DNA of 64,000 bases from Solimonas aquatica (GTDB lineage Bacteria > Pseudomonadota > Gammaproteobacteria > Nevskiales > Nevskiaceae). Each line of letters starts with the position of its first letter. The stretch's first letter is position 1. Positions 17,408-58,814 of the stretch are shown here, one piece after another. The notes under the pieces are model-generated. The model saw only the letters and a list, made by a program, of their open reading frames with translations, was not told the origin of the DNA and searched no databases. The translations under genes and the position numbers were made by a program. The stretch covers positions 124,001-188,000 of the forward strand of contig NZ_FOFS01000004.1 in NCBI RefSeq assembly GCF_900111015.1, read 5' to 3'.

Positions 17408-20353
17408 TCAAGGCGCGCAGCGGCGTGGATCCGGCTCGAGGGCGCGCAAACCCCGTCCCGCCGTCACCCAGGCAATCTTGCAGCGCAGCAGCTGTTGCAG
17501 CTGCGCCGGCGTGCGCGTCTCGCCGCTCATCGGCCAGAGTCGGGTGGCGCCGTCGCTGCCGGTGGTGTAGGCCAGCCGTCCATCCGGAGCAAAGCCGGCC
17601 GCAAACGGCAGGATGGAGCCGGCATGCGCATTGAAGGAATACAGCAGTTCGCCATCCTGACTGTCCCAGATCCTGAGCCGGCCATCATCCGCCGCCGACA
17701 GCAGCAGACTGCCGTCCGGCGAGAAGGCCACGGTATGCACGGCGGCATTGTGGCCGCTGAGCGTGAGATAGCGGCGGCTTGGCAGATGCCAGAGCAGCAT
17801 CGTCTTGCCGGCATCGGCGATGGCGATCTTGTCGCCGTCGCGACTGAACGCTCCCATGGAGAAGTGCACGGCGGCGGGATGATCCAGCCTCTGCAGCAGG
17901 CGCCCGCTGGCGACATCGATCACGAACGCCCAGCGCCGCTCGGCGAGCACCAGCAGCCGGCTGCCGTCGTCACTGAACACCACCGCGCTGATGGTGGTGG
18001 CCGGCGCGATCGCCAGCTGGCGCCGCCAGCGCGGGGCATCGGCTGCGGTCGGCTGCAGGTAGAGGGTGTCACCACTGCCGTATGCGAACTCTGCCTGCCG
18101 CGGGGAAAAGGCAAAGGCGCGGCTGAAGTCCGTTGCCAGCTGATGGCGCTGGCGATGCGTGCCCAGTTCCAGCACCCGGATACCGCCCTCCTTGATCGCT
18201 TGCGCCAGATAAGCGCCGCTGTGATCGAAGCCCAGATTCACCACCTTGGCCGCCACGCCGGCATAGCGATCCAGCAAGCGGTCGTCCGGCAGCGAATGCA
18301 GCTGCAGGGCGCCGCTCTCGTCGGCCAGCGCCAGCTGCCGGCCGTCTTTGGAGAGCGCCGCGCGCAGCGCAGGTGTGGCGCCGGCACCGAAGCCGGGCTG
18401 GCGCCGTCCCTGGGCGTCGTAGAGGCCGCCTTGCGAACCGCCCACGAAATATCGGCCGTCGCTGGCAAAGGCCAGCGGCGGTGCCTGATGCGTGCCGTCG
18501 CGATACTGCTGCTGCGCGGCTTGCGGCAGACGCCAGATCACCAGGGTGCCGTCATTGCCACCGCTCACCGCATGCTGGCCATCGGGCGCAAAGTTGAAGG
18601 CGTTGACGCCTCCGAGATGCGCATCGAGCGAGTACAAGGACGCGCCGCTGTCGGTATCGACCACCGACAAGCGACCTTCGCCGATCCGCGCCAGCATCGA
18701 TCCCTCGGGATTCATCACCGCGGGATTGCCGGCCGGGTCCAGGAAGCGCTCGGCATACAGCAAGGCGCCGCCACGGCTCTGCCAGATGCTGACCTGCGCA
18801 CGGGTCGCGGTCATCAGCCGCTGCCCGTCCGCACTGAAGTGCAGATCGCTGATGATGGCATTGTGTCCGCTGCTCATCAGCAGCGTGGCCGCGTCGACAT
18901 CCCAGATCCGCACCGCACCGTCGTGCGTCGCTGCGGCCAGCAGCCGGCCGTCGCGACTGCAGTCCAGCACTACCGCCCGCCCCGGCAGCCCCTGAAAGCG
19001 GCGCAGCACCGGCACTCCGGCGCGGCGCGGATCACGCAGCTCGATGCGGCCATCCTGCGCGGCGGTGACCAGGCCGCGTCCGCCGCAATAGCGCGCGGTG
19101 CTGTAATCGCCGGCCAGTCGCTGCAGGCTGGCGCCAATGGCGCCGTAGTGCAGCGCGCGATCGGGTCCGAGCAGCACCACCTCGCGCTCGTCGTCCGACA
19201 AGGGGTTGGGCGACACGCCATAGTCGCTGTCGTCCAGCGACTCATCGTTCATCTTCTCGCGCAGCAGCAGCCGGCCGTCGCGGGCATCGAACAGGCGCAT
19301 TTCGTGCCCCTGCCGTCCCAGGCTTTCCAGCCAGAACACGCGCCCGCCCAAACCAAACGCGCCGAAAAACCTGTCCACATCCCCCAGGGGCAGATCGAAG
19401 ATCGGCTGCTGGGGCTGGGCCAGCAGATAGCCGCGCAGGTGCACATCGATGCCAATGGCGATGGCGCGCGTGAGATCCGCATTCACGTCCGCCAGCCACA
19501 CCGGCACGCCGGTGCGGATGCGCAGTTGCTGCGGATCGACCGCGGCCATGGCGCGCGCCAGCATGAAGCGCAGGGCCGGCGTATCCAGACCCAGGCGATA
19601 GGCCTCGCCGAGATAGGCCGCCGCGCGCGCCTCGTTGTGCGCCAGCAGTTCCTCGCGGCCATTGCGGTAGAGCATCTCGATGCGCGCTTGCAAGGCCTGC
19701 GTGCGCAAGGCTTCCTGTTTCTCGGCCTGCTGCCAGTGCCAGGCGCTGAACAGGGACGCGGCCGCACACAATCCCAGCGCGCCGGCCAGCAGATGGTTGC
19801 GGATGCGGCGACGGCGTTCGCGACGGCGCAGCTCGTCGTAGCCGATGTCGAGCATGCCCGCGATCAGCTTCAGCGCCGCGCCGTCCCGGGTATCGGCCTT
19901 CAGGTCTGCCGCCAGGGGTTCGGGCGCGCGGCCGCAGACCTCGCCCTGCTCGTCGTAACGCTCCAGCAGCGCCGGGGGAAACACTTGCTGCCCGCCGGCG
20001 CTATCCAGGCGCAGACAGAGAATGTTGCGCTCGCGGCCCAGGCGCTTGAAGCTGCGCACTTCCTCATTGACCCAGCGCGATTGCGCCGCACCCGGCGAGC
20101 ACAGCACGATCAGATAGCGCGACTGGTGCAGGGCCTGCTGCACCACCCCACCCAGATCCACGGAGCTGGGCAACTCGTCGCGGTCACGGAATACCGGCGC
20201 CAGGCGCGCCGGCACCTGGATGTCGTGCAGCGGCCTGCCCAGCAGATGGCGGGGTACGCGGTAACGTTCGAGATAGCGATGCAGCCACTGCGCCTCGCGA
20301 CGGTCGCGGTGGTGATAGCTGATGAAAGCCCAATAGCGGAAACCCTGCGGCAA
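17408..20353 (-). CDS. TIR domain - transmembrane - WD40 repeat protein
   Basis: 981 aa. Residues about 5-140 are a TIR domain: box 1 is FRYWAFISYHHRD, followed by FRDRDELPSS, LIVLCSPGAAQSRWVNEEV and ILCLRL. The Trp-Val-Asn-Glu-Glu segment (94-98) holds the acidic residue expected at a TIR NADase active site. Residues 187-207 form a single membrane segment preceded by an Arg-rich stretch (176-185), placing the TIR domain in the cytoplasm and the C-terminal part probably in the periplasm. Residues about 270-960 are WD40 beta-propeller repeats (for example SGHNAAVHTVAFSPDGSLLL, DDGRLRIWD), likely two propellers. The start is TTG 20353; no ATG is possible before residue 167. It is divergent from a nucleotide cyclase gene across 69 bases. 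By analogy with TIR proteins it may degrade NAD or sense a signal; function is unproven. Confidence 0.8.
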   Translation of the reverse strand: MPQGFRYWAFISYHHRDRREAQWLHRYLERYRVPRHLLGRPLHDIQVPARLAPVFRDRDELPSSVDLGGVVQQALHQSRYLIVLCSPGAAQSRWVNEEVRSFKRLGRERNILCLRLDSAGGQQVFPPALLERYDEQGEVCGRAPEPLAADLKADTRDGAALKLIAGMLDIGYDELRRRERRRRIRNHLLAGALGLCAAASLFSAWHWQQAEKQEALRTQALQARIEMLYRNGREELLAHNEARAAAYLGEAYRLGLDTPALRFMLARAMAAVDPQQLRIRTGVPVWLADVNADLTRAIAIGIDVHLRGYLLAQPQQPIFDLPLGDVDRFFGAFGLGGRVFWLESLGRQGHEMRLFDARDGRLLLREKMNDESLDDSDYGVSPNPLSDDEREVVLLGPDRALHYGAIGASLQRLAGDYSTARYCGGRGLVTAAQDGRIELRDPRRAGVPVLRRFQGLPGRAVVLDCSRDGRLLAAATHDGAVRIWDVDAATLLMSSGHNAIISDLHFSADGQRLMTATRAQVSIWQSRGGALLYAERFLDPAGNPAVMNPEGSMLARIGEGRLSVVDTDSGASLYSLDAHLGGVNAFNFAPDGQHAVSGGNDGTLVIWRLPQAAQQQYRDGTHQAPPLAFASDGRYFVGGSQGGLYDAQGRRQPGFGAGATPALRAALSKDGRQLALADESGALQLHSLPDDRLLDRYAGVAAKVVNLGFDHSGAYLAQAIKEGGIRVLELGTHRQRHQLATDFSRAFAFSPRQAEFAYGSGDTLYLQPTAADAPRWRRQLAIAPATTISAVVFSDDGSRLLVLAERRWAFVIDVASGRLLQRLDHPAAVHFSMGAFSRDGDKIAIADAGKTMLLWHLPSRRYLTLSGHNAAVHTVAFSPDGSLLLSAADDGRLRIWDSQDGELLYSFNAHAGSILPFAAGFAPDGRLAYTTGSDGATRLWPMSGETRTPAQLQQLLRCKIAWVTAGRGLRALEPDPRRCAP

Positions 20354-20422
20354 CGTTCCCCCCGTCTCCCGATGCGCGCCAAGCCATCATAATGGTTCGA
20401 CGCAGGCAGCAGGGGGAATGCG
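20354..20422. promoter_or_regulatory. Shared 69-base divergent intergenic region (TIR-WD40 / cyclase)
   Basis: The only space between two non-ATG starts (TTG at 20353 on minus, GTG at 20423 on plus). It contains a CATAAT-type -10-like sequence (20388-20393) and purine-rich ribosome sites on both sides (GGGGGAA before the TTG on minus; AGGGGGAA before the GTG on plus). The shared region suggests joint control of the two genes. Confidence 0.5.
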
Positions 20423-22885
20423 GTGCCGAACAGCCGAGGCAGCAGGGCCGGCGACAACCAGGAACAGCAGGCGCTGCAGCGCTATCTGCGCCGCGCCGAG
20501 GAACAGGCGCGGCACTGGCTGAGCGTGGGCGGCTGCGGCCATCTGCTGATCAGCGATGCCGAACAGGCGCATGCGCGGCGCCTGCTGGAGGAGCAGCTGC
20601 TGCCACCGCTGGCGGACACGAAGCAACGCTGGCAACTGTTGTCCGGCATGGCGCCCGGCGCCGATCTGCTGTTCGTCGAGACGCTCAGCCGCTGGCTGCA
20701 GGCCCGGGGAATCGAGTTCGATCTGATCGCCATCCTGCCGGTGCCGGCGGAATATCTGATCAGTGACTGGCAGCTGCGCTGCGAACAGGAGCAGCTGCAT
20801 GTGAGCGCCATCACGCGGCGCCGCGTGCAGGCCCAGCTGGAGGCGCAGCTGGCCCAGGCACGCGAGGTGATTCCGCTGTTCGGCGAGGACGACGGTCCGG
20901 CGCAGTTTCGTTCACGCCGCTATCGCCAGCATCAATACCAGCGCCTGGCGGCGATTCTGGCGCAGCATCCGGAGCTCCTGTTCGGCATCGTGCGCCCGCA
21001 GCGTGGCGGCGCGCCCGGCGGTTCGCTGGAGGTGCTGGGCTGGCGCGAGGACCGGCGCCGCATCCCCAGCGATCTGCGTCTGCATCGCAATCACTGCGCT
21101 GCCCAGCCGCGCACCCTGGTGGTGAATCTCAGCGAGAGCGCGGGCGCGCTGCGCGCCGGACCGGACGATCCCGTGCAGCGCGTGCTGCAGCGCACGCAGG
21201 AAGCGAGTCAGAGCGGCAACGCCCTGGCCTGCCTGGACATCGTGCGCGCTGCGCAGCGTCAGGGTCTGCAGGATGTGCGCCTGGACTATCAGCTGATCCA
21301 GGCGCTGGCCAACACCGGCAACACCCAGCAGGCGCTGAATCATTACCGCGAGCTGGACCTGGGGCCGGAAGCGCACAGCGAGGACTGGCTGGCGCTGCGC
21401 GGTCGCCTGGAGAAGGACCTGGCGCTGCGCGCGCAGCCGCGCTCCTGGCGGCAGTTCGCCCGCGCCGCCGAAGCCTACGAAGCCGCGTTCAAGCGCCATG
21501 GCGGCTACTACAGCGCGATCAATGCCGCCAGCATGCGCCTGCTCGCCGGACAGGCGCGACAGGCCCACAAGCTGGCCGAGCAGACCCTGGAGCTGCTGGC
21601 CGTGCGCAGCGCACCGGATGAGATCGAACGCTATTACCAGCACGCCACCCGCGCCGAGGCGCTCTTGCTGCTGGGCGACGCCCAGGCCTGCGCGCTGGCG
21701 CTGCGCCAGGCCAATCCCCTGCTGCCACAGGACACCCTGCGCCGCAGCCGCACCCAGCAGCAGCTGCATCTGCTGTGTCAGGAGCTGGGACTGAGCACCG
21801 CGCCGCTGCGCGAGCTGCAGCTGCCGCCGGTGGTGCTGCTGCGCCAGCACGGCCGTCCGCCGCGCCGCCTGCAGCGTACGCAATGGCCGGCCCCGCTGCG
21901 CGAGCTGATCGCGCAGCGCAGCTTCATCAATCTCTGCCTGCAGACCCCGGGCGATCTGCTGCTCTGCGAGCGCCTGCACGAACAGGGGGCGCGCCTGTAT
22001 CTGACCCTGCCGGTGCCGGCGCCGGAACTGGTGCGGCGCTGGCGTCAGCCTTCGCCACACAAATGCGAGGAACGCCTGACGGCCCTGCTGGACAAGGCAC
22101 AGACCGTGATCGTGCAACGCGGCTTTCTGCCGCGCGAACAGAGCTGGCAGAACGCCGAGGCGCAGGCGCTGACCCTGGGGCTGTCGGTGCTCACGGCGGC
22201 GCGCACCGCGATGCAGTGGCGGCTGCTGGAGCTGAGCTGGAATGAAGACGGTCCGCGCTGCCTGCGCAGCGAACTGGTGGCCGAGCCCGCGCGTGAAGCG
22301 GCGCGCGCCTACGCGCTGGCCGGTCTGCCCACGGTCAAACCCAGCTCCAGCCAGCGGCGCATGGCCGGCCTGATCTTCGCCGACTTCTCCGGCTTCGCAC
22401 GCCTGCAGGACAGCCTGTATCCGCGTTATTACCGCGAGGTGATCGGCGGCCTGGCGCGGCTGCTCGACCGCCACGGCCAGACCGTGCGCGTGCGCAAGAC
22501 CTGGGGCGATGCCCTGCACGTGGTCACCGACGATGCCAGCAGCGCGGCGCTGATCGCCGTCGAGGTGCAGGCGTTCATGGAGAAACACCGCCTGCGCCAT
22601 GACGGCATGCTCGGCGATCTGGAGCTGCGCGTGGCCGCGCATTACGCCCCCGTGTTCTCCGGCTATGACGAGGTGGAGCACCTGCCCGCGCACTTCGGCA
22701 CGCAGCTGGCGTTTGCCGCGCGCATCGAACCGGTGGCACCGCCCGGCAGCATTTACGTCACGGAAAACTTTGCGGCGCGGCTGAGCTTCGAATCACCGCA
22801 GCGCTACATCCTGGAATACGCCGGCGAGGTGGAGCTGGCCAAGCACTACGGTGCTTATCGCCTGTTCGCGCTGCGCGCGCGCTGA
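20423..22885 (+). CDS. SLOG-like / TPR-S-like / class III nucleotide cyclase protein
   Basis: 820 aa, GTG start at 20423 after AGGGGGAATGC. Residues about 35-225 look like a Rossmann-type SLOG nucleotide-binding domain (LSGMAPGADLLFVETLSRWL at 73-92, then IAILPVPAEYLISDW). Residues about 240-460 are helical repeats with YEAAFKRHGGYYSAINAASM near 350, resembling the TPR-S/DUF4071 domain seen in prokaryotic conflict proteins and in ASK kinases. Residues about 645-815 form a class III adenylyl/guanylyl cyclase domain: metal Asp 654 (IFADFSGF), Asp 696 (KTWGDALHV) and Arg 767. The canonical transition-state Asn is replaced by Ala 763. No signal peptide or membrane segment is seen. The gene is divergent from TIR-WD40. 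I infer a ligand-sensing cyclase whose product could act on the TIR partner. Confidence 0.75.
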   Translation: MPNSRGSRAGDNQEQQALQRYLRRAEEQARHWLSVGGCGHLLISDAEQAHARRLLEEQLLPPLADTKQRWQLLSGMAPGADLLFVETLSRWLQARGIEFDLIAILPVPAEYLISDWQLRCEQEQLHVSAITRRRVQAQLEAQLAQAREVIPLFGEDDGPAQFRSRRYRQHQYQRLAAILAQHPELLFGIVRPQRGGAPGGSLEVLGWREDRRRIPSDLRLHRNHCAAQPRTLVVNLSESAGALRAGPDDPVQRVLQRTQEASQSGNALACLDIVRAAQRQGLQDVRLDYQLIQALANTGNTQQALNHYRELDLGPEAHSEDWLALRGRLEKDLALRAQPRSWRQFARAAEAYEAAFKRHGGYYSAINAASMRLLAGQARQAHKLAEQTLELLAVRSAPDEIERYYQHATRAEALLLLGDAQACALALRQANPLLPQDTLRRSRTQQQLHLLCQELGLSTAPLRELQLPPVVLLRQHGRPPRRLQRTQWPAPLRELIAQRSFINLCLQTPGDLLLCERLHEQGARLYLTLPVPAPELVRRWRQPSPHKCEERLTALLDKAQTVIVQRGFLPREQSWQNAEAQALTLGLSVLTAARTAMQWRLLELSWNEDGPRCLRSELVAEPAREAARAYALAGLPTVKPSSSQRRMAGLIFADFSGFARLQDSLYPRYYREVIGGLARLLDRHGQTVRVRKTWGDALHVVTDDASSAALIAVEVQAFMEKHRLRHDGMLGDLELRVAAHYAPVFSGYDEVEHLPAHFGTQLAFAARIEPVAPPGSIYVTENFAARLSFESPQRYILEYAGEVELAKHYGAYRLFALRAR

Positions 22886-47185: not shown

Positions 47186-48838
47186 ATGAGCCAGCCCGAC
47201 AGCGGCGCACAGCCTTACGGCAGCTTTGATTACGTGATTGTCGGCGGCGGCAGCGCGGGCTGCCTGCTGGCCAATCGCCTCTCACAGGACCCGAAGGTCT
47301 CGGTGCTCTTGCTGGAGGCCGGCGGCCCCGACAACTGGCACTGGATTCACATCCCGGTCGGTTATCTCTACTGCATCGGCAATCCGCGCACGGACTGGTG
47401 TTACCGCACGCAGGCGGAATCCGGCCTCAACGGCCGCAGCATTCTCTACGCGCGCGGCCGCGTGCTGGGCGGCTGCTCCTCGATCAACGCCATGATCTAC
47501 ATGCGCGGCCAGGCGCAGGACTATGCGCAATGGGCGGCGCTGAGCGGCGATGCCAGCTGGAACTGGGACGCCGTGCTGCCGCTGTTCAAGCGTCACGAGG
47601 ACCACTGGCGCGGCGGCGACGCCCTGCACGGCGCCGGCGGCGAACTGCGCGTGGCACAGCAGCGTCTGCGCTGGGACATTCTCGACCGCTTCGCCGAAGC
47701 CGCCGCGCAGGCCGGCATCGCGCCCAGCGCCGACTTCAACGGCGGCGACAACGAAGGCTCCGGCAAGTTCGAGGTCACGCAGCGGCGCGGCCTGCGCTGG
47801 AGCGCGTCCACGGCGTTTCTGAAGCCGGTGCGGCAGCGGCGCAATCTGACGGTGCTCACCGGCGCGCTGGTGCATCGCCTGCGCATCGAGAACCGGCGCA
47901 TCAGCGGCCTGGAGTTCGCCGTCGGTGAGGCCCGCTACCACGTGCAGGCGCGCGCCGAAACCGTGCTCAGCGCCGGCGCCATCGGCTCGCCGGCGATTCT
48001 GCAGCGCTCCGGCATCGGTGCACCGGAACTGCTGCAGCGCCTGGGCATTGCCCTGCAGCACGCGCTGCCGGGCGTCGGCGAGAACCTGCAGGATCATCTG
48101 CAGCTGCGCGCGATCTATCGCGTGCGCAACATCCGCACGCTCAATCAGGTGGCCAACAGCCTCTGGGGCAAGCTGGGCATGGGTCTGGACTTCGCGCTGC
48201 GCCGGCGTGGACCGCTGACCATGGCGCCCAGCCAGCTCGGTGTGTTCACCAAATCCGATCCCGCGATCGAACGCGCCGATCTGGAATACCACGTGCAGCC
48301 GCTGTCGCTGGACAAGTTCGGCGAGCCCCTGCACCGCTTCCCGGCCTTCACCGCCAGCGTCTGCAATCTGCGCCCCAGCTCACGCGGCCAGGTGCGTATC
48401 GCCAGCGCCGATCCGGCGCAGGCACCGCTGATTGCGCCGAACTACCTGAGCAGCGAGCAGGATCGTCGCATCGCCGCCGCCGCGCTGCGCCTGACCCGGC
48501 GCATCGTCGGCATGCCGGCGCTGGCACCGTATCAACCCGAGGAGTTCCTGCCCGGCGCGCAGCTGCAAAGCGATGCGGAACTCGCGCGCGCCGCCGGCGA
48601 TATCGGCACCACCATCTTCCATCCGGTCGGCACCTGCCGCATGGGCCGCGCCGACGACGAACAGGCCGTGGTGGATGCGCAGCTGCGCCTGCGTGGCCTG
48701 GCCGGGCTGCGCATCGCCGACGCCTCGATCATGCCCACCATCCCCTCGGGCAACACCAATGCGCCGACCATGATGATTGCCGAGAAGGCCGCGGCGCTGA
48801 TCGCAGCGGCGCGGCCTTGGCAGGGTGATGCCGGCTAG
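47186..48838 (+). CDS. GMC family FAD-dependent alcohol (choline-type) dehydrogenase
   Basis: 550 aa flavoprotein. Signatures: FDYVIVGGGSAGCLLANRL (FAD), ARGRVLGGCSSINAMIYMRG (GMC signature 1), GAIGSPAILQRSGIG (signature 2) and HPVGTCRMG plus GNTNAPTMMIAEKAA with catalytic His/Asn. Relatives include AlkJ and polyethylene-glycol dehydrogenases, which oxidise medium-chain primary alcohols to aldehydes in hydrocarbon degraders. A TAGAAT -10-like box lies at 47148-47153. I use ATG 47186; GTG 47165 is an alternative. Its position after the copper monooxygenase suggests it oxidises the alcohol product. Its stop overlaps the stop of the convergent CHAT gene (CTAG). Confidence 0.9.
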   Translation: MSQPDSGAQPYGSFDYVIVGGGSAGCLLANRLSQDPKVSVLLLEAGGPDNWHWIHIPVGYLYCIGNPRTDWCYRTQAESGLNGRSILYARGRVLGGCSSINAMIYMRGQAQDYAQWAALSGDASWNWDAVLPLFKRHEDHWRGGDALHGAGGELRVAQQRLRWDILDRFAEAAAQAGIAPSADFNGGDNEGSGKFEVTQRRGLRWSASTAFLKPVRQRRNLTVLTGALVHRLRIENRRISGLEFAVGEARYHVQARAETVLSAGAIGSPAILQRSGIGAPELLQRLGIALQHALPGVGENLQDHLQLRAIYRVRNIRTLNQVANSLWGKLGMGLDFALRRRGPLTMAPSQLGVFTKSDPAIERADLEYHVQPLSLDKFGEPLHRFPAFTASVCNLRPSSRGQVRIASADPAQAPLIAPNYLSSEQDRRIAAAALRLTRRIVGMPALAPYQPEEFLPGAQLQSDAELARAAGDIGTTIFHPVGTCRMGRADDEQAVVDAQLRLRGLAGLRIADASIMPTIPSGNTNAPTMMIAEKAAALIAAARPWQGDAG

Positions 48839-51800
48839 CGCCGGCGCGCGCGCTTCCTGACGCGGGCCTTGCGCGCCGGCGCTGCCGCGTCCGGCGAGGC
48901 GCCATCGAAGGCCTCCAGCATCTGCGTGAAGGCGGCGAAGATCACCTCGCCGTGCGTCAGCTTGCGGCGCAGCTCTTTTTCACACTGCGCGTCGAAGCGC
49001 TGCGGCGAAAGCAGATGCTCCAGCTTGTGCTGCGCATCGCGATTGAAGGGGCAGCTGCCGCGCGTGGCGGTGTGCACCGGATACGGCGACGCGGCGTTCA
49101 GCCTGGGCCGTTCGGCACGCAGCATCTGCGCCGCCAGGGTCTGCACCAGGGCATTGGCGATCACCCGCGCAGCGCTCTGACCGCGCGGCGGCAGCGCCAG
49201 TCCGGCGATGGAGAAAACCGTCACCGGCAGTGCCGGGTCCCCGCTCCACCAGGCGTAGAGATCTTCGGCATGCTCGTCCCAGATCCAGCGCGGCGTGATG
49301 CAGGACAGGAAGTCCAGGTGCAGGCGCTGCACGCGCTCGCGCATCGCCTCGGCGAAGTCCCGCGCGCGCAGAGAGCTGCGCTTGCGCTGCGCCTCCCATT
49401 TCCACACGCCCAGGGGCACGGCGATTTTCACCGGCCGGAACAGAAACACCGACTGGCATTCATTGAGCGCGGTCAGCGTGGCGGAAAGTTCCGGGAAGTA
49501 GCCCGCCAGATCCGCCACGCCCACTTCCTGCCGCGCGTCCGCAGCGCCGCGCAAGGCCACGCCGGCTTCCGGCCCGGTCTCCAGCAGCGGCCGCGCACGC
49601 GGCGCACGCTGCTGCGGACTCAGGGCGCAGAGCCGCAGATTGGGATCGCGCGCGTAGAGCATCGGCACCGCCCAGTCGATGGTCTCGCTGTCGCTGGCAT
49701 AGTTCACCGCGATACGCGCCTCGCGCGCCGCTTCGCCCAGCGTGCCGCCGTGGGCCAGCTCCGCGTAAAAACGCTGCGCGAAGCTCACCGCCGAGGGATC
49801 GAGCACCTTGTACTGGTTGGCCACCACTGCGGGCAGACCACCCTTGACCAGGGACTGCGCGATGCCGCGATTGCTGCGGCTGCGCGAGTCCTGCCCGCTT
49901 TCACAGGCATTGAGAAACACCAGCTTGATGCCGCGCCCGCAGAAGATCTCGCGCAGGGTCTGCGTGTCGACGAATTCGGGCTCGCCATCCAGACCGCTGA
50001 AGATCAGCCGGCCCTGATCGGCCTGGCTGTCGAACTCGCCGTGGCCCATGAAGTGCACGATGTCGAAGCTCTGGTTCTGGCGCTGCGCATCGACGATGCG
50101 ATCCTGCAGCAGGTCCACAGTGGCCGCCGCCAGCACCTCCAGCTGCACCAGCCCCGCCGCCAGCAGCGGCGCGAAACGCAGTCGGATGCGCGCTTCCTCG
50201 TCGTCCAGTGACAGCAGCGCCGTACCCACCGGCTGCGCCGCCACCACCAGCATCCGCAAGGGCGCCGCGTGGCCCGGCATCAGCTGCGCCGGCACCGAGG
50301 TGGGGACATTGCGGATGAAGTGCACGTCTTCGGTGGCGAGAAATTTTTCACGCACCGGGTCGTAGACGAATTCCCAGGGCTTGCTCGCCACCCAGGGGAT
50401 GGTGCAGGTGAAGATGACATTGAGCGTGGCATTGAGCTGCTCGCTGCGCGCCACATCGTAGAGACGACGCACGCGCCCCACGAACAGGGCTTCAAACAGC
50501 AGGGCGCCGAAGATGCGCAGCTCCTCATCGCCCGGCAGTTCGCCGGCGCCGGTATCCAGATGCTTCCGGATCGCTTCGTGGCGGCGGATGATTTCGCTGA
50601 AGCGCTCGCCGGGCAGCAGGCTGGCCACGGTCTTGCGCACTGCGCGCTCGGCGCGCGAGGTGCGGCCACGACCGGGATTGCGCAGCGGAAAGGGCTCGAT
50701 GATCACCGCGCCGCGATACATCGCCAGCAGCTGCGCATTGTCGCGATCGCCGACGGATTGCGAGATCACCAGATGCAGGCTGTGATCATCATGCGCCGCC
50801 GGCACCAGCAAGCCGGCCGGCGCCGGCAGCGGCGCCGCTGCCGCCACCAGCGCCCGGGCCGGTGCAGCGGCAGGCGCCGCCGCCACGGGCGCCGGCAGTG
50901 GCTCTGCCAGCGGCGCACCGCGAAACAACTTGCGGCTGCGACGCGGCTGCGTGAGATCCAGCAGCGGCAGGCCCTGGTTCTCGCCGGCAAAGGCGCGGTC
51001 GATGAAGCCGCGCACCTCGGGCTGCGCGCAGACGCTCAAGTGATGCACATCGGTGTTCTGCGGGCGCAGATTGCCGTCGAAACCAAAACAGGCCACGCGC
51101 GGCGCCGGCACCACCGGCGCGGGCGATACCGTGGGGTCCACGCGCCAGGCGCCATCGGTCGGCACCACCAGATCATTGGCGCCGCCGAAGAAGGAATCGA
51201 CGCCGATATCGAGCAGCTTCTGCCACAGCGCGGCATTGGGGTTGTAATTGGCGCCGACGGCCGAATACGCGCCACTGCGCGGTCCGCTGCCGGCTTGCAG
51301 CGCGCTGATGGTGCTGCCGGCGCCGTCCATGTCGGACAGCCCGTCGAGACTGCCGCTGAGCTTGCTGGCCAGCCAGACCAGACCGTCAGCGACGAAGGAC
51401 GCACCCATCACCCAGGGATTGTCGCCGGGGAACAGCTCCAGCAGATTGGCGACCATGCCGAAGGTGTCTTCCCAACGCTCGGGCGTGGCCAGCGGCGTGC
51501 CGGCATTGGGCGTGGCCAGCAGCACGCCATGGTGCAGAACGAAGCGCGCGCCCTGCGCGCCAAAACGCTCGGGCTGTTCGGCGAGCGTGCGCAGCAAAAG
51601 CCCGCCGCGCGAGTAGGACACCACATCGAACTCATGCTGGCCTTCCGGCAGCGCCGCCAGCAGCGCCTGCGCGTTTTCCTCCAGCGAGCGGCTCACCGTG
51701 TAATGCTCGAAGGCGTAGACGCGGTTGTCATAGCGCTTGCGCAGCTGCGCCAGATAGCCCTCGCCGAGCAGCTTGCCGAAGGAACCCTGCGTGTTGGAGA

Positions 51801-52422
51801 AGGTGCCGTGCAGGAACAGCAGCGAACGTCCCTGCGCACGCGGCAGCTGCTGGAGCGGCTTGAGTTCCAGCGCGCCGGCGGCCGTGCGTATTTCGTTCCA
51901 GCCCAGGGCGCCGCCGTGCCACCAAGCCTTCTCCGCCAGACGTCCGGCCTGACGAATGCCGATCGCCACCACCTTGTCGATCAGCGCCTGCCGCAGCTTG
52001 AGCACCGCCACCTTGAGCACACGGCTGAGCAGGCCGCGCTGCTGCAGCTGCGGCTGCAGCGGCGCCAGCGGCACGCGAAAATGCGCGACCGTGGCGGCGC
52101 TGCGCGCACCGCGCCGCGCTTCCCGCAGCACCGGCGCGTGAAAGCTCACCGCGCCGGAAGCGTGGCGCACGATCAGCACCGCGCCCTGCGTGGCCTCGAC
52201 ATCGGCCTCCAGTTCCAGCAACTCCGGCGGCGCGGCGCCACGCAGGGCCGGCCCCGGCGTGATCTGCGCGTAATCCTCCAGGCTTGCACCGGCCGGCAGC
52301 TGCGCGGCGATGAGGGCGGGCAGCACCGTGTCCTGCACGGCGCCGCGTCGCGCACCGCGCAACACCGGCAGCCGATAGCTGCGTAACTGCCAGGACTGCC
52401 GGTCGGCAAGGCGGATGCTCAT
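48835..52422 (-). CDS. Lipase-like alpha/beta hydrolase fused to a CHAT (caspase-like) protease
   Basis: 1195 aa. Residues about 195-420 are an alpha/beta hydrolase: LLFLHGTFSN at 201-210 and nucleophile Ser 271 in VVSYSRGG. An Ala/Pro-rich linker spans about 503-545. Residues about 720-930 are a CHAT domain with the caspase dyad His 794 (HFMGHGEFD) and Cys 840 (LVFLNACESG), followed by the conserved GLPAVVANQYKV and LYARDPNLRL. The last ~260 residues are unrecognised, with several Cys, ending in a basic tail. No signal peptide or membrane helix. It follows the caspase gene by 21 bases. I infer a protease-activated or protease-regulated lipase acting in regulated cell death or defence; not proven. 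Confidence 0.82.
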   Translation of the reverse strand: MSIRLADRQSWQLRSYRLPVLRGARRGAVQDTVLPALIAAQLPAGASLEDYAQITPGPALRGAAPPELLELEADVEATQGAVLIVRHASGAVSFHAPVLREARRGARSAATVAHFRVPLAPLQPQLQQRGLLSRVLKVAVLKLRQALIDKVVAIGIRQAGRLAEKAWWHGGALGWNEIRTAAGALELKPLQQLPRAQGRSLLFLHGTFSNTQGSFGKLLGEGYLAQLRKRYDNRVYAFEHYTVSRSLEENAQALLAALPEGQHEFDVVSYSRGGLLLRTLAEQPERFGAQGARFVLHHGVLLATPNAGTPLATPERWEDTFGMVANLLELFPGDNPWVMGASFVADGLVWLASKLSGSLDGLSDMDGAGSTISALQAGSGPRSGAYSAVGANYNPNAALWQKLLDIGVDSFFGGANDLVVPTDGAWRVDPTVSPAPVVPAPRVACFGFDGNLRPQNTDVHHLSVCAQPEVRGFIDRAFAGENQGLPLLDLTQPRRSRKLFRGAPLAEPLPAPVAAAPAAAPARALVAAAAPLPAPAGLLVPAAHDDHSLHLVISQSVGDRDNAQLLAMYRGAVIIEPFPLRNPGRGRTSRAERAVRKTVASLLPGERFSEIIRRHEAIRKHLDTGAGELPGDEELRIFGALLFEALFVGRVRRLYDVARSEQLNATLNVIFTCTIPWVASKPWEFVYDPVREKFLATEDVHFIRNVPTSVPAQLMPGHAAPLRMLVVAAQPVGTALLSLDDEEARIRLRFAPLLAAGLVQLEVLAAATVDLLQDRIVDAQRQNQSFDIVHFMGHGEFDSQADQGRLIFSGLDGEPEFVDTQTLREIFCGRGIKLVFLNACESGQDSRSRSNRGIAQSLVKGGLPAVVANQYKVLDPSAVSFAQRFYAELAHGGTLGEAAREARIAVNYASDSETIDWAVPMLYARDPNLRLCALSPQQRAPRARPLLETGPEAGVALRGAADARQEVGVADLAGYFPELSATLTALNECQSVFLFRPVKIAVPLGVWKWEAQRKRSSLRARDFAEAMRERVQRLHLDFLSCITPRWIWDEHAEDLYAWWSGDPALPVTVFSIAGLALPPRGQSAARVIANALVQTLAAQMLRAERPRLNAASPYPVHTATRGSCPFNRDAQHKLEHLLSPQRFDAQCEKELRRKLTHGEVIFAAFTQMLEAFDGASPDAAAPARKARVRKRARRR

Positions 52423-52443
52423 GGCCAGTCTCCCGCTGCGGAT

Positions 52444-53271
52444 TCAGATCGTGAACGGCGCCTGCGCTTCGAAAGCAGGGTTGGCGGCACCCACGAAGTA
52501 ATAGTTCGGCGTCTGCGTGCTCGGCATCCGCGCCACGACCTGATCGCGCAGCTGCCGATAGTTCGCCGGCTTGCCGCGCAGCACCTGCTTGAGCGTGCCG
52601 GTGAACAGACCGTTCTTGTCGCCGTCCTGCGAATACTGATTGTCCATGCAGCCGGACACCAGCAACACACTGGCGGCAGGCTTGTTGCGTTCCGCGCCCT
52701 TGAGCTTCTTCTGTATGCCGGCGTACAGCGCGCGATGTGCCTTCTCCACGCGCTGTCCCACCACCGTGGGCATCGCGCGGATGCGCGCGCCGCCACGCAG
52801 AAACGGCGGAACGTCGCGCAGCACCGTGCCGCTGTGACAGCTGTCGGAGAGCACCACGATGCGCACGCCCGCCTTGAATCGGGTGTAGAGCTGGTAGAGC
52901 TCGTCGTCGACCAGCTGGCGGTCGTAGAGCACCCAGGTCTCGTCCATGCGGTCCTTTTCCTCGTCACCGTTCAGGTCTTTCACCTGACCGCCGTGACCGG
53001 AGTAAGTGAGAAACAGGATGTCGCCCTTCTTCAGCTGCGTGGCCAGCTCGCCAAGATGCTGGATCACCGCCTGTGCGGTCGCCGCCTTGGTGAGCAGCCG
53101 CGCCGTCACCTTGAAACCGCGTGCCGTGGCCAGCTTGGCCATGTCGCGGGCATCCGCCTCGCAGGCCGTCAGCTGGCCATCCCAGCCTTCGTACTGCGCG
53201 GGATCGACGCGGTTCAGACCGATGTGCAGCGAATAGCCCTTGGCCTTCGCCCTGCTGCGTTTCTGTGCCAT
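52444..53271 (-). CDS. Caspase-like (C14, metacaspase-type) protease
   Basis: 275 aa, ATG 53271 (MAQKRSRAKAKGYSLHIGLN). The p20-like fold runs from about residue 12 to 200: catalytic His 93 in LTYSGHGGQ and Cys 145 in LSDSCHSG, with an Asp-rich segment just after the His (DLNGDEEKDRMDETW), as in Ca-dependent type I metacaspases. The N-terminal dozen residues are Lys/Arg-rich, the site such enzymes prefer to cut. No prodomain or membrane segment. It is first in a two-gene operon with the lipase-CHAT gene, suggesting a proteolytic cascade. Confidence 0.88.
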   Translation of the reverse strand: MAQKRSRAKAKGYSLHIGLNRVDPAQYEGWDGQLTACEADARDMAKLATARGFKVTARLLTKAATAQAVIQHLGELATQLKKGDILFLTYSGHGGQVKDLNGDEEKDRMDETWVLYDRQLVDDELYQLYTRFKAGVRIVVLSDSCHSGTVLRDVPPFLRGGARIRAMPTVVGQRVEKAHRALYAGIQKKLKGAERNKPAASVLLVSGCMDNQYSQDGDKNGLFTGTLKQVLRGKPANYRQLRDQVVARMPSTQTPNYYFVGAANPAFEAQAPFTI

Positions 53272-53485
53272 GAGATCGACTCCTTCATTCAAGCCACGGC
53301 CGGCGGCACACGCGCTGCTCGCTGTGTGGAGCGGGCCTGGCAGTGGCTGCATCCGCCGGCATGATGATGCGCCACTCCAGGCTCATTTACTGCATCTGTG
53401 GCGGTTTCAAGCACGCGCAGGTGTGCAGCCATCTCGCGGCAAGTACGGCCGCGACGCTGTGATGTCGTTCACGGCGCCGCGCGCA

Positions 53486-53549: not shown

Positions 53550-54998
53550 TCAGGCGATGAGGTCTTTGATCACCTCACCGTACACCACGGTCGGACGCTC
53601 GGAACGGCCGTTGTTGAGGAAGGTCACCTTGAGATGATCCAGACCCAGCAGCGCCAGCACCGTGGCGTGCAGATCGTAGGTGTCCACGGTCACGCCCTGC
53701 GACTTCAGGCCGATCTCGTCGGTCTCGCCGAAGGTGAAGCCGGCCTTGGCGCCGCCACCCGCGATCCACTGCGTATAACCCCAGGGGTTGTGATCACGGC
53801 CATTGCCGCTCTGGCCATAAGGCGTGCGCGAGAACTCCGAGGTCCAGACCACCAGCGTGGAGTCGAGCAGGCCGCGCGACTTCAGATCCGCCAGCAGTCC
53901 GGCGATGGGCTTGTCCACCGCGCGCGCATGCACGGCGTGGTTGCGCTCCAGGTTCTTGTGCGCGTCCCAGTTCTGATCCTCACCGTCGATGTCGACGGCC
54001 CCCGTCACCACCTGCACGAAGCGCACACCGCGTTCCACCAGACGCCGCGCGCGCAGCAGATTGGTGCCGTAATCGCGCGTGGCCTCCTCGTCCAGGCCGT
54101 ACAGTGCCTTGGTCGCATCGCTTTCCTTGCTCAGGTCCACCGACTCCGGCGCCGCCGCCTGCATGCGATAGGCCAGCTCGTAGGAATTCAGGCGCGCCTG
54201 CAACTCGGTGTCCTGCGGATAGCGCGCGGCGCGATGCTGGTTCAGACGCTTGAGCAGATCCAGGTTGTCGCGCTGCTGGGCCAGCGCCACCAGTTCCGGC
54301 GGCTGCAGGTAGAGAATCGGCGAAGGACCCGAGCGGAAGGCCACACCCTGATACACGGCCGGCAGAAAGCCCGAGCTCCAGTTCACCGAACCACCCGAAG
54401 GCTCCTTCTTGCCCGAGTACAGCACCACATAAGGCGGCAGATCACGATTGCCCGAGCCCAGGGCATAGGCGGTCCAGGCGCCCAGCGTCGGCCGGCCCGG
54501 ATTGAGATCGCCGGTGTTGAGCTTGAGGATGGAGATGTCGTGCGTGGCACCGACCGTGACGCTGGACTTGATGAAGGTCAGCTTGTCGGCGTGCTGCGCG
54601 AGATTCGGCAGCAGGTCCGAGAACCAGGCGCCGCTTTCACCGTACTGCTTCCAGCTGCGCTTGGAAGCGTAAAGCTTGCCGACGCCGCCCTGCGTGCTGG
54701 TCTTGATACCCTTGAGAAACGAGGCCGGCACTTCCTGTCCCGCAAGCTTTTCCAGCTGCGGTTTGTAGTCGTACAGATCCAGGGTGCTGGGCGCGCCGTC
54801 CTGATGCAGCCAGATCACCGACTTGGCCTTGGCCGCGAAATGCGGCGGCTTGGGCGCCAGCGGATCGGCGCTGCCATTGGCCAGCTCCGAGGCATAAGCG
54901 GCGTTCAGGCCGCCCGGGATCAGGCCGTTCAGCGCCAGACCGCCAAGGCCCAGGCCGCCCTTGATCAGCAGTTCGCGTCGCGTGGTGTGCTTGCTCAT
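53550..54998 (-). CDS. DUF1501 family protein, Tat-exported
   Basis: 482 aa with a twin-arginine signal (TTRRELLIKGGLGLGG at residues 5-20). The mature part has the family features WLHQDGAPSTLDLYDYKPQL, a central GRPTLGAWTAYALGS and the C-terminal VVWTSEFSRTPYGQSGNGRDH. DUF1501 proteins are sulfatase/phosphatase-fold-like secreted proteins, typical of Planctomycetes and found in some proteobacteria, nearly always paired with a DUF1549/DUF1553 protein as here; their reaction is not established. ATG 54998 lies 25 bases after the partner's stop. Last gene of its operon. Confidence 0.85.
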   Translation of the reverse strand: MSKHTTRRELLIKGGLGLGGLALNGLIPGGLNAAYASELANGSADPLAPKPPHFAAKAKSVIWLHQDGAPSTLDLYDYKPQLEKLAGQEVPASFLKGIKTSTQGGVGKLYASKRSWKQYGESGAWFSDLLPNLAQHADKLTFIKSSVTVGATHDISILKLNTGDLNPGRPTLGAWTAYALGSGNRDLPPYVVLYSGKKEPSGGSVNWSSGFLPAVYQGVAFRSGPSPILYLQPPELVALAQQRDNLDLLKRLNQHRAARYPQDTELQARLNSYELAYRMQAAAPESVDLSKESDATKALYGLDEEATRDYGTNLLRARRLVERGVRFVQVVTGAVDIDGEDQNWDAHKNLERNHAVHARAVDKPIAGLLADLKSRGLLDSTLVVWTSEFSRTPYGQSGNGRDHNPWGYTQWIAGGGAKAGFTFGETDEIGLKSQGVTVDTYDLHATVLALLGLDHLKVTFLNNGRSERPTVVYGEVIKDLIA

Positions 54999-55023
54999 GA
55001 AATAGTCCTTGAATGCTTGTCGT

Positions 55024-57360: not shown

Positions 57361-58814
57361 CACTTGGTTTCCGTCAGGGAAAGCTGCGCCTTGCTGTCGA
57401 TGCGGCCCACGGCGGTGAGCAGCTCGGTGTAGGCGATCTTGCGGTTGTCGGCCGGCAGATGGATCGGCACGATGCGCTCCACCACCAGCTTGCGGGCTTC
57501 GATATTGGCCACCAGGCTCTGCTGGAAGGGACTGATGCTGGCCGGCGTCTGCGTCAGCGGCGAGGCCGGCGGATTGAAGGCATCGGCCTCCACCAGCACC
57601 TTCTCATTGGGCAGATAGGCCACCAGCGTGCCGTCGTTGTGACCGAAGTCCTGCAGCCGGAACAGCTGCACGCTGTGCTCGCCATCGCTGAGCAGCAGCT
57701 CATCCTTCACCGCGCGGAACTTGGCCGGCCTGGGGTGCAGCGCGAGACGGTCCGGCGCCAGACGATGCGGATTGGCCCAGACCTTCTGGAAGTACGGCAC
57801 ATTGCTTTCGTGGGTGATGATGGTCGCGCCTTCGGCCACGTAATTGCGCAGACCGCCGGCGTGATCGAAATGCGCGTGCGTGTTGACCAGGGCGCCGATC
57901 TTCTTGCCCGGGAACAGGCGCTTGGCCTCGGCGATCACCGCCTCGGAGCGCTGATCGTTCTGACCGCCCTCGATGATCAGCACATGATCCTTGAAGCCCA
58001 CCGCCACGGCGGCATAGCCGCCGCTGATCAGCCACACGTCCTTGCCCAGCGGCTCCGAAGCCAGCACCGGCGTCGGCGGCACGCTGGCCTTGATCTGCGC
58101 CGGTACATTGAGCTTCACCTCGCTGACGTTCAGCTCCAGCACCGGATAGCCGCCGGCCTTCTGCACGATGTGCCCGGGGAACTGCACACCGCCGAAGTCG
58201 CGATAGCCGGAGAACTGCGCCTCATAGTTCACATCGCCATACACCGGATTGTCGATCTGCGTTTCCACGCGCTCGATCTGGTGCTGGGCATTGACCCAGC
58301 CGCGTGTGCGCGCCTTGTTGGGCGCGGTGAAGCTCAGCACCGTGTAGTGCTTGCCGCCGGCGTGCTGTTCCTCGGCCTTGAGGTCGCTGGCCTGTTGCGC
58401 GGCCTTGATGAAGGCCTGCGGCAGCGTCACCGCCAGCTCGCTCTGCAGCGAAATCGCGCTCGGACTTTCCGCCGTCACGCTCTGGGTCTGCTGCTGCTCG
58501 CCGAAGATCGGCTGCCCGCCGCCGCCGCGCGGCGGGTTCTCGCCCTGCAGACGCGTGCGCTGCAGCTCGGTGGCCCAGGGCGCGAAGCTGACCACGCGCT
58601 GATAGGACTTGTCGATGAACTTCGGCCAGGCTTCGCCGGCATGGCCAAACTGGCCCAGTGCGTAGTCGCTGCCCGCACCGGAGAACTGGATGGACTGCAG
58701 CGACTCGGCGCCCAGCGCGCTGGCGACTTCGCTCAGCGTCTGCGCCGGCGTCGCGGCGCCGGCCTGCAGGGGCAGGGCCAGCAAGGGCAGCAGATAAAAG
58801 GGTTTGCGGGACAT
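57360..58814 (-). CDS. Secreted MBL-fold metallo-hydrolase
   Basis: 484 aa with a signal peptide (SRKPFYLLPLLALPLQAGA). Residues about 20-245 are a beta-rich N-terminal domain of unknown type; residues about 250-440 are a metallo-beta-lactamase fold with the metal motif NTHAHFDHAGG and later His/Asp residues (ITHESN, FGHNDGT, LVEADAF). Substrate unknown; relatives include lactonases, sulfatases and glyoxalase II. It lies between a cytochrome b gene (23 bases upstream) and the DUF1549/1553 gene (overlap), so it belongs to the same periplasmic pathway. Confidence 0.85.
   Translation of the reverse strand: MSRKPFYLLPLLALPLQAGAATPAQTLSEVASALGAESLQSIQFSGAGSDYALGQFGHAGEAWPKFIDKSYQRVVSFAPWATELQRTRLQGENPPRGGGGQPIFGEQQQTQSVTAESPSAISLQSELAVTLPQAFIKAAQQASDLKAEEQHAGGKHYTVLSFTAPNKARTRGWVNAQHQIERVETQIDNPVYGDVNYEAQFSGYRDFGGVQFPGHIVQKAGGYPVLELNVSEVKLNVPAQIKASVPPTPVLASEPLGKDVWLISGGYAAVAVGFKDHVLIIEGGQNDQRSEAVIAEAKRLFPGKKIGALVNTHAHFDHAGGLRNYVAEGATIITHESNVPYFQKVWANPHRLAPDRLALHPRPAKFRAVKDELLLSDGEHSVQLFRLQDFGHNDGTLVAYLPNEKVLVEADAFNPPASPLTQTPASISPFQQSLVANIEARKLVVERIVPIHLPADNRKIAYTELLTAVGRIDSKAQLSLTETK

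What the first reader, a model, noticed from the sequence alone, without database searches (positions are those of the whole stretch)
17408..22885. Divergent TIR-TM-WD40 and SLOG/TPR-S/cyclase pair: candidate undescribed signalling or defence system
The two genes share a 69-base divergent promoter. One has TIR, membrane helix and WD40 propellers; the other has a SLOG-like nucleotide-binding domain, TPR-S/DUF4071-like repeats and a class III cyclase. TIR, SLOG, TPR-S and nucleotide-generating domains recur in prokaryotic conflict systems, but I do not know of this exact pairing as a described system. A simple model is that the cyclase makes a cyclic nucleotide or related signal that triggers the TIR domain, perhaps gated by a periplasmic WD40 sensor.
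Basis: partly seen in the sequence, partly recalled or inferred. Interest (0 to 1): 0.82.

Follow-up and report, generated by a model that had tools for sequence, protein, structure and literature searches.

The report
TIR receptor paired with SLOG–TPR-S cyclase
Two neighbouring bacterial genes form a signalling pair that recurs in distant bacteria, in which a membrane TIR protein (an immune-type NAD-cutting enzyme) most likely makes a small messenger that switches on an unusual cyclic-nucleotide synthase; the wiring is predicted, not tested in the laboratory.

Summary
P1 (17408-20353, -) is TIR, probable membrane helix, WD40. P2 (20423-22885, +) is SLOG, TPR-S, a worn second SLOG, class III cyclase.

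The pairing is real. A TIR gene lies next to 31 of 80 relatives of P2, in three phyla and several gene orders, against 0 of 8 other class III cyclases. In an even sample of 398 genomes of the phylum, 10 of 17 other TPR-S loci have a TIR gene within 1.4 kb.

The presumed catalytic Glu is kept in 32 of 32 TIRs. The 72 aligned cyclases keep both metal Asp and the Arg; few keep the usual base-selecting Lys (3) or transition-state Asn (4). A CRP-type output is a weaker inference: 8 of 17 and 5 of 80 loci, and control cyclases have it too.

It is not Thoeris or Pycsar as defined, though it would work like Thoeris with a cyclase output. TPR-S as a reader of NAD-derived signals is, as I recall, already predicted (Burroughs & Aravind 2020, not held). 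New variant of a known kind; direction, messengers and role are unproven.

The parts
17408..20353 (-). P1: TIR - probable membrane helix - WD40 protein, 981 aa (putative receptor / NADase)
20000..20326 (-). TIR domain of P1 (aa 10-118); presumed catalytic Glu98 at 20060-20062
   Evidence: TIR_2 E 3.8e-11; Glu position kept in 32 of 32 TIRs; its catalytic role is by recalled equivalence to SARM1/plant TIRs
19736..19795 (-). probable membrane helix of P1 (aa 187-206), TIR side positively charged
   Evidence: hydropathy 1.51, below the 1.6 threshold used for relatives
17525..19087 (-). WD40 propeller region of P1 (aa about 423-943)
20354..20422 (.). 69-base intergenic stretch with divergent starts; near-palindrome CCATCATAATGG at 20384-20395, recognisable in the window and the 5 Solimonas species compared (diverged in S. 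marina)
   Evidence: no sigma-70 consensus found
20423..22885 (+). P2: SLOG - TPR-S - degenerate SLOG - class III cyclase, 820 aa
20510..21142 (+). N-terminal YpsA-like SLOG domain of P2 (aa about 30-240)
21170..21814 (+). TPR-S / ASK1-like TPR region of P2 (aa about 250-464); Tyr352, Asn367, Glu412 invariant in 72 of 72
21812..22342 (+). second SLOG-like domain of P2 (aa about 464-640), lacking the GH and GxLAxGAD motifs kept in distant relatives
   Evidence: hhalign 98.4%, E 4.1e-15 to the inner domain of relatives
22355..22882 (+). class III cyclase domain of P2 (aa 645-820): Asp654, Asp696, Arg767 kept; usual transition-state Asn is Ala763; base-selecting Lys position is Lys692

Best explanation
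A two-component nucleotide-signalling pathway. P1 is a membrane-anchored TIR receptor whose WD40 part, probably outside the cytoplasm, senses an unknown cue. Its TIR domain then cuts NAD+ and makes a soluble NAD-derived messenger (a cADPR-type molecule is the first guess). P2 is the receiver: its SLOG and TPR-S domains bind that messenger and switch on the class III cyclase, which makes a cyclic mononucleotide, possibly not cAMP. In some relatives the output may be read by a CRP-type transcription factor encoded in the same cluster. Shown: the domains, the recurrent gene pairing, conserved residues at the presumed active sites, a CRP-type gene in a part of the loci. Inferred: direction of signalling, NAD cleavage, identity of both messengers, which SLOG binds what, the sensed cue, and any CRP-type output in Solimonas, where none is linked.
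For: TIR gene adjacent (within 350 bp) in 31 of 80 relative loci, 13 divergent, 12 upstream co-directional, 5 downstream co-directional, 1 convergent, versus 0 of 8 other class III cyclases; 7 other TIR ORFs in 1.24 Mb of flanks. 15 of the 31 were given to Pfam and all 15 have TIR_2. Independent sample: TIR within 1.4 kb of 10 of 17 TPR-S loci. Presence/absence in 85 genomes of the order: both 29, cyclase only 2, TIR only 2, neither 52, with full agreement inside five genera in which presence varies. Presumed catalytic Glu kept in 32 of 32 TIRs; metal Asp pair and Arg in 72 of 72 cyclases. SLOG fold closest to YpsA; the YpsA-like SLOG clade includes cADPr sensors (PMC9503650, section 20 read), and TIR-to-SLOG signalling is the Thoeris mechanism (PMC10022894, passages). 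CRP-type gene in the cluster of 8 of 17 sampled TPR-S loci, with TIR in 7. One actinomycete protein holds DNA-binding, cNMP-binding and TPR-S regions (Pfam) ahead of SLOG and cyclase parts (alignment). Partner TIRs carry variable repeats, 27 of 31 with a predicted helix, as receptors would.
Against: No biochemistry. In 49 of 80 loci no TIR is adjacent; none of the Nevskia loci fetched has one in its flanks. CRP-type genes lie within 1.4 kb in only 5 of 80 loci (one a fusion). Of the 8 in the sample, 4 belong to loci without a detectable cyclase and 2 lie beside the TIR gene, so TIR, TPR-S and CRP can stay together without a cyclase. 5 of 8 control cyclase regions also hold a cNMP-binding ORF. 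The Solimonas pair has no CRP gene beside it; CRP-type genes occur also in genus members without the pair. One relative beside a TIR-WD40 and a CRP-type gene (L063) has lost both metal Asp and the Arg. The window cyclase lacks the usual Asn. No CRP site in the intergenic region.
Confidence: 0.45

Rival explanations
1. Pycsar-like direction: the cyclase senses a cue through SLOG/TPR-S, makes a cyclic nucleotide, and this activates the TIR to destroy NAD+.
For: Pycsar pairs a pyrimidine cyclase with PycTIR (PMC11224242, passages). The cyclase family has atypical base-selecting positions, as would suit a non-cAMP product. TIR and cyclase are linked.
Against: PycTIR carries a cyclic-nucleotide-binding domain; P1 and the 38 TIR ORFs of the 80 related loci have none by my profile. 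Most TIR partners carry a helix plus repeats. No PADLOC match for P2.
Confidence: 0.18
2. Adaptor model: the TIR domain and the TPR-S scaffold touch directly, and no NAD-derived messenger is needed.
For: TPR repeats often bind proteins (general knowledge); TPR-S overlaps a match to the ASK1 TRAF-binding region (MAP3K_TRAF_bd E 3.6e-8). In L178-L181 the TPR-S protein stays with TIR and CRP without a recognised cyclase.
Against: The presumed catalytic Glu is invariant in 32 of 32 TIRs. A motif-bearing SLOG is kept, at the N-terminus where the inner one has decayed.
Confidence: 0.16
3. Pseudo-cyclase: the cyclase domain binds but does not convert a nucleotide and acts only as a switch.
For: Transition-state Asn position is N in 4 of 72 and base-selecting Lys position is K in 3 of 72. 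L063 has lost the metal site and L178-L181 show no cyclase domain. PMC7159879 reports catalytically inactive cNMP cyclase domains in other conflict systems (passages).
Against: Both metal Asp and the Arg are 72 of 72 in the main alignment, which an inactive domain need not keep. CRP-type neighbours and one cNMP-binding fusion.
Confidence: 0.15
4. No functional link: the two genes are chance neighbours.
For: Linkage absent in 49 of 80 loci. One of six cyclase-domain-only loci of the phylum sample (L176) also has a TIR ORF nearby.
Against: 31 of 80 versus 0 of 8 controls; independent sample 10 of 17; presence/absence agreement.
Confidence: 0.02

Closest known systems
TPR-S sensor proteins (Pfam PF20308; Burroughs & Aravind 2020, recalled, not held)
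   Same: P2 and the relatives scanned contain this domain. The idea that TPR-S reads NAD-derived signals made by TIR is, as I recall, theirs.
   Different: P2 has an added N-terminal SLOG and a decayed inner one; its partner is a TIR-WD40 protein. Whether that paper already lists the cyclase, TIR or CRP partners I could not check.
Thoeris (ThsB TIR + ThsA SLOG effector)
   Same: TIR enzyme in one gene, SLOG receiver in the next; P1 TIR hits ThsB_TIR; SLOG fold similar to BcThsA (Z 6.0).
   Different: Receiver ends in a cyclase, not in SIR2; TPR-S in between; TIR protein has a probable membrane helix and WD40.
Pycsar (PycC cyclase + PycTIR/PycTM)
   Same: A class III-type cyclase gene beside a TIR gene.
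   Different: No cyclic-nucleotide-binding domain on the TIR protein; sensor modules are on the cyclase.
Class III adenylate/guanylate cyclases
   Same: Fold (CyaB 3r5g Z 21.5, sGC 8hbf Z 21.7), metal Asp pair and Arg.
   Different: Usual base-selecting Lys and transition-state Asn mostly replaced in the family; SLOG/TPR-S input; TIR partner.
Animal ASK1 (MAP3K5) TRAF-binding TPR region
   Same: MAP3K_TRAF_bd matches P2 aa 282-429.
   Different: No kinase; bacterial; cyclase output.

Membership tests
Thoeris | ThsB-type TIR protein | tested here: met
   ThsB_TIR PF08937 E 1.8e-9, above cut-off; PADLOC ThsB only E 0.014
Thoeris | SLOG domain in the partner | tested here: met
   SLOG fold, YpsA Z 15.4, BcThsA SLOG Z 6.0
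Thoeris | ThsA effector with SIR2 (or macro/TM) in the SLOG protein | tested here: not met
   P2 Pfam hits above cut-off are TPR-S, MAP3K_TRAF_bd and Guanylate_cyc only; no PADLOC hit
Thoeris | TIR makes a cADPR isomer read by SLOG | not testable with these tools
   needs biochemistry; presumed catalytic Glu kept 32 of 32
Pycsar | class III-type cyclase | tested here: met
Pycsar | effector with cyclic-nucleotide-binding domain fused to TIR or TM | tested here: not met
   no cNMP-binding match in P1; 0 of 38 TIR ORFs of the 80 related loci
Pycsar | makes cCMP or cUMP | not testable with these tools
   atypical base-selecting position in the family noted
TPR-S proteins (PF20308) | TPR-S domain above curated cut-off | tested here: met
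   59.2 bits versus 27.6
TPR-S proteins (PF20308) | binds NAD-derived nucleotides | not testable with these tools
   recalled prediction only
class III cyclase | fold and Guanylate_cyc profile | tested here: met
   28.7 bits versus 21.9; Z 21.7
class III cyclase | two metal-binding Asp and catalytic Arg | tested here: met
   Asp654, Asp696, Arg767 in the window and in 72 of 72; 27 of 28 in A1, exception L063
class III cyclase | transition-state Asn | tested here: not met
   Ala763 in the window; N in 4 of 72; position supported by the alignment of a relative to solved cyclases
SLOG domain | Rossmann-like SLOG fold with GH and G-x-A-x-G-A-D type motifs | tested here: met
   that these motifs mark SLOG is recalled
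enzymatic TIR (NADase) | conserved catalytic Glu | tested here: met
   Glu98 position 32 of 32; equivalence to SARM1 recalled, not superposed
anti-phage defence system | protects against phage | not testable with these tools
   indirect signs only: position among housekeeping genes, no phage record matching P2

The most novel reading that the evidence does not exclude
A bacterial TIR-to-transcription relay with two messengers in series: membrane TIR receptor makes an NAD-derived signal, a SLOG/TPR-S cyclase converts it into a cyclic nucleotide of unusual kind, and a CRP-type factor changes gene expression. This would be a regulatory TIR pathway, not a suicide switch, with a TPR-S component homologous to animal ASK1, a kinase that (from memory) acts in innate immunity.
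Probability: 0.28. Interest if true: 0.82.

Novelty: new variant of a known kind. Interest (0 to 1): 0.6.

Why it matters
The bacterial TIR systems I know of mostly end in NAD+ depletion or another lethal effector. Here a TIR that keeps its presumed catalytic Glu is tied, in records from three phyla, to a cyclase with sensor domains and in part of the loci to a CRP-type regulator, which suggests that TIR-made nucleotides could drive graded gene regulation. It also offers a testable case for what TPR-S binds, what an off-consensus class III cyclase makes, and whether the TIR-ASK1 axis of animals has a bacterial counterpart.

Tried and rejected
Literature: no paper coupling TIR, SLOG, TPR-S and a cyclase turned up in the held library (searches; one search searched TPR-S and DUF4071 alone). 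Listings only, apart from passages of six papers and one section. Burroughs 2015 and Burroughs & Aravind 2020 are not held under the ids I recalled, so 'undescribed' is not claimed.

SLOG by sequence: no Pfam hit on the window protein, 3 of 28 relatives; PDB profile search gave nothing useful; Foldseek alone gave no E below 0.001. VIA-align gave the SLOG match. The full-length model was dominated by the cyclase, so TPR-S and the inner SLOG were not compared by fold. No structure of P1 was predicted.

Defence-system models: P1 matches SAVED_TIR (E 2.5e-5), ThsB (E 0.014) and HEAT-ARM_XIII through its repeats, P2 nothing in PADLOC; nothing at cut-off in NCBIfam. Mobile origin: three plasmid records match, none over 80% of P2; no phage record; GC of P1 0.686 and P2 0.70 against 0.667 for the window. 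Promoter scan: nothing. CRP-site scan: 9 matches in the window, fewer than chance (mean 14.15), none intergenic, one with one mismatch inside P2 at 20800. CRP adjacency as proof of this system: weakened by 5 of 8 control regions and by its rarity in the 80 loci (5).

Rows dropped or not counted: 9 of 80 loci left out of the 72-row alignment for stops or frame breaks; A2 used 49 of those 72. The 24 genomes of the phylum sample include the own one and 6 with only a cyclase-domain match, leaving 17; one of the six (L176) has a ThsB_TIR ORF nearby. L189's cNMP-binding match, in a 744-aa ORF, was not counted as CRP. G007 was not counted TIR-positive because its match misses the TIR part. Adjacency limits differ: 350 bp for the 80 loci (1.4 kb gives the same 31), 1.4 kb for the 17. 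My TIR profile was iterated on the same ORFs it then counted; Pfam checked 15 of its 31 adjacent hits. One search, protein 10, had wrong coordinates and says nothing; that gene was validated.
Full report
WHAT IS THERE. P1 (981 aa) has a TIR domain at aa 10-118 and WD40 repeats to its C-terminal part. P2 (820 aa) has TPR-S at 269-371, overlapping a match to the TRAF-binding region of animal ASK1-type kinases (MAP3K_TRAF_bd), and a class III cyclase domain at 648-805. The N-terminal domain of P2, modelled alone from 28 sequences (pLDDT 91), is a SLOG fold: YpsA Z 15.4 over 169 residues at 3.5 A, DprA 11.1, ShosA 11.0, then PpnN/LOG proteins near 9, with the ThsA SLOG bound to 3'cADPR at 6.0. The full model (pLDDT 90.9) places the cyclase domain with soluble guanylate cyclase and CyaB (Z 21.7 and 21.5).

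A SECOND SLOG. In most of the distant relatives printed it carries a GH motif and a G-x-L-A-x-G-A-D type motif (L143 does not). In the window protein and the Nevskiales relatives printed there both motifs are gone, yet it is the same domain (hhalign 98.4%, E 4.1e-15). These proteins have instead an N-terminal SLOG that bears the motifs and is itself related to the inner one (86%, E 5e-6). So the motif-bearing SLOG seems to have moved from the inner copy to an added N-terminal copy. In six fetched loci (L039, L053-L056, L062) the N-terminal SLOG is a separate ORF directly before the TPR-S-cyclase ORF; some of these could be frame breaks.

THE PAIRING IS REAL. A scan of one genome per species confirmed 241 relatives of P2; the best 80 loci were kept. 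With a TIR profile started from P1 and nine neighbour proteins and iterated on these ORFs, a TIR ORF lies within 350 bp of the cyclase in 31 of 80 loci, or 26 of the 63 with at least 1.5 kb on both sides. Elsewhere in 1.24 Mb of flanks there are 7. Fifteen of the 31 were checked with Pfam and all 15 have TIR_2 (seven, eight). By record title the 31 include Solimonas and Hydrocarboniphaga (divergent, as in the window), sphingomonads, Arenimonas, other Alpha- and Betaproteobacteria, an Acidobacterium and three Actinobacteria; 13 are divergent, 12 upstream and 5 downstream co-directional, 1 convergent. An actinobacterial TIR-WD40 neighbour (L095) has both domains by Pfam. As a control, 16-kb regions around 8 other class III cyclases of the same order hold no TIR (0 of 8); the control is small.

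INDEPENDENT SAMPLE. In 398 genomes of the phylum drawn evenly, 24 matched the P2 profile at E 1e-20 or better; 17 besides the own genome have the TPR-S part. Of these 17, 10 have a TIR gene within 1.4 kb, 8 a CRP-type gene in the cluster, and 7 both. Pfam confirms TIR in the six partners checked and cNMP_binding plus a Crp-type HTH in the three CRP genes checked. In 4 of the 7 (L178-L181) my profile finds no cyclase domain, so the three gene types with a recognisable cyclase are together in 3 of 17 (L183, L185, L186). The CRP-type gene lies beside the TPR-S gene in 6 of the 8 and beside the TIR gene in 2 (L185, L186). One of the 17 (L194) is probably also in the 80-locus set. One of 6 cyclase-domain-only loci (L176) has a ThsB_TIR ORF nearby.

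CO-OCCURRENCE. In 85 genomes of the order, with cut-offs E 1e-50 for the cyclase and 1e-30 over the TIR part, both are present in 29, only the cyclase in 2, only the TIR in 2, neither in 52 (Fisher p 4.5e-18, not corrected for kinship). Five genera vary without disagreement (both/neither 7/4, 3/1, 1/2, 1/1, 1/2); three contain the disagreements (16 both with one of each single; one TIR only and one neither; one cyclase only and four neither). None of the fetched loci of the 18-genome genus (Nevskia by most record titles) has a TIR in its flanks; there the TIR matches lie elsewhere in the genome, some extending over WD40, the C-terminal parts of the others not identified. The own genome has a second TIR protein, with TPR repeats (L064), but one cyclase of this family.

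ACTIVE SITES. The Glu that I take as catalytic (position recalled from SARM1 and plant TIRs) is present in 32 of 32 TIRs, P1 plus the 31. That the TIRs examined need a conserved Glu is stated in PMC10022894 (passages). In 72 aligned cyclases both metal Asp and the Arg are invariant; in the 28-row A1 one protein, L063 of Sinimarinibacterium, has lost all three (27 of 28). The position of the base-selecting Lys is Lys in 3 of 72 (the window among them) and Asn in 39; that of the transition-state Asn is Asn in 4 and Ser in 47, Ala in the window. Alignment of a relative to solved cyclases supports these equivalences. So the cyclase is probably active but off-consensus, and its product should not be assumed to be cAMP. 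In TPR-S, Tyr352, Asn367 and Glu412 are 72 of 72.

DIRECTION. The nucleotide-sensing modules are on the cyclase protein. No TIR ORF of the 80 loci has a cyclic-nucleotide-binding domain by my profile, unlike PycTIR (PMC11224242, passages). Cyclic-nucleotide-binding ORFs lie within 1.4 kb of the cyclase in L083, L089, L106 and L143, and in L123 within one polypeptide that also has Trans_reg_C and BTAD: 5 of 80 loci. Against over-reading this, 5 of 8 control regions also hold such an ORF, and the sample shows TIR, TPR-S and CRP without a cyclase in four loci. The Solimonas genome has one match to such a CRP protein elsewhere (40% identity), but all 11 other genomes searched, with or without the pair, have matches too.

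TOPOLOGY. 27 of 31 partner TIR proteins have a predicted helix downstream of the TIR; L067, L113, L120 (cut off) and L129 do not. P1 itself reaches 1.51, below the 1.6 used. Charges suggest TIR inside and WD40 outside.

DEFENCE OR REGULATION. The pair sits among housekeeping genes (rpmA, rplU, ispB on one side; moeB, prmC, prfA, hemA on the other; names from recognition of the sequences), and part of the moeB-hemA side recurs beside the pair in 4 of 5 other Solimonas loci, not in S. terrae (L035). No phage record matches P2 and three plasmid records do. This looks more like a stable signalling system than a mobile defence island, but absence from 4 of 11 members of the genus leaves a defence role open.

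COMPARISON. It would work like Thoeris (TIR product read by SLOG) with a cyclase in place of the NAD-destroying effector, and is not a member because the ThsA effector is absent. It is not Pycsar, because the TIR has no cyclic-nucleotide receptor. It is a member of the TPR-S protein family. That TPR-S senses NAD-derived signals is, from memory, an existing prediction (Burroughs & Aravind 2020); PMC8195603 cites that paper for TIR-made NAD-derived signals (passage). PMC9503650 (section 20 read) describes the YpsA-like SLOG clade as including cADPr sensors. Hence: new variant of a known kind.

Noticed in passing
window 48835-53352: A large CHAT-domain protein (DUF7379 + CHAT, 1195 aa) directly beside a caspase-family (Peptidase_C14) gene: a possible protease-based conflict or signalling pair.
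   Followed up: no
G000:C15:107688-108257, read in L064:8180-10273: Second TIR protein of the same genome, with TPR repeats and a predicted helix in place of WD40; the TIR partners in L178, L183 and L185-L187 are also TIR-TPR; no other cyclase of this family in the genome.
   Followed up: partly
L123:168-3083: Single actinomycete polypeptide with Trans_reg_C, BTAD, cNMP_binding and TPR-S (Pfam), followed by SLOG and cyclase regions seen by alignment.
   Followed up: partly
L178-L181: TIR, TPR-S and CRP-type genes kept together although the TPR-S protein has no cyclase domain detectable by my profile; the cNMP-binding scores are lower there.
   Followed up: partly
L059 and L063: Sinimarinibacterium genome with two P2 relatives, one near a TIR-TPR gene and one near a TIR-WD40 gene, each with a CRP-type gene in the neighbourhood; the one in L063 has lost both metal Asp and the Arg.
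   Followed up: partly
window 53550-57363: DUF1501 and PSD1/PSCyt2 genes, families I associate (from memory) with Planctomycetes, in a gammaproteobacterium.
   Followed up: no
L177:1-7914: Caballeronia plasmid pSBC2-4 carries a TPR-S-cyclase gene behind a 463-aa protein without Pfam match; a DUF4231 gene and a TIR gene lie about 3 and 5.5 kb upstream.
   Followed up: no
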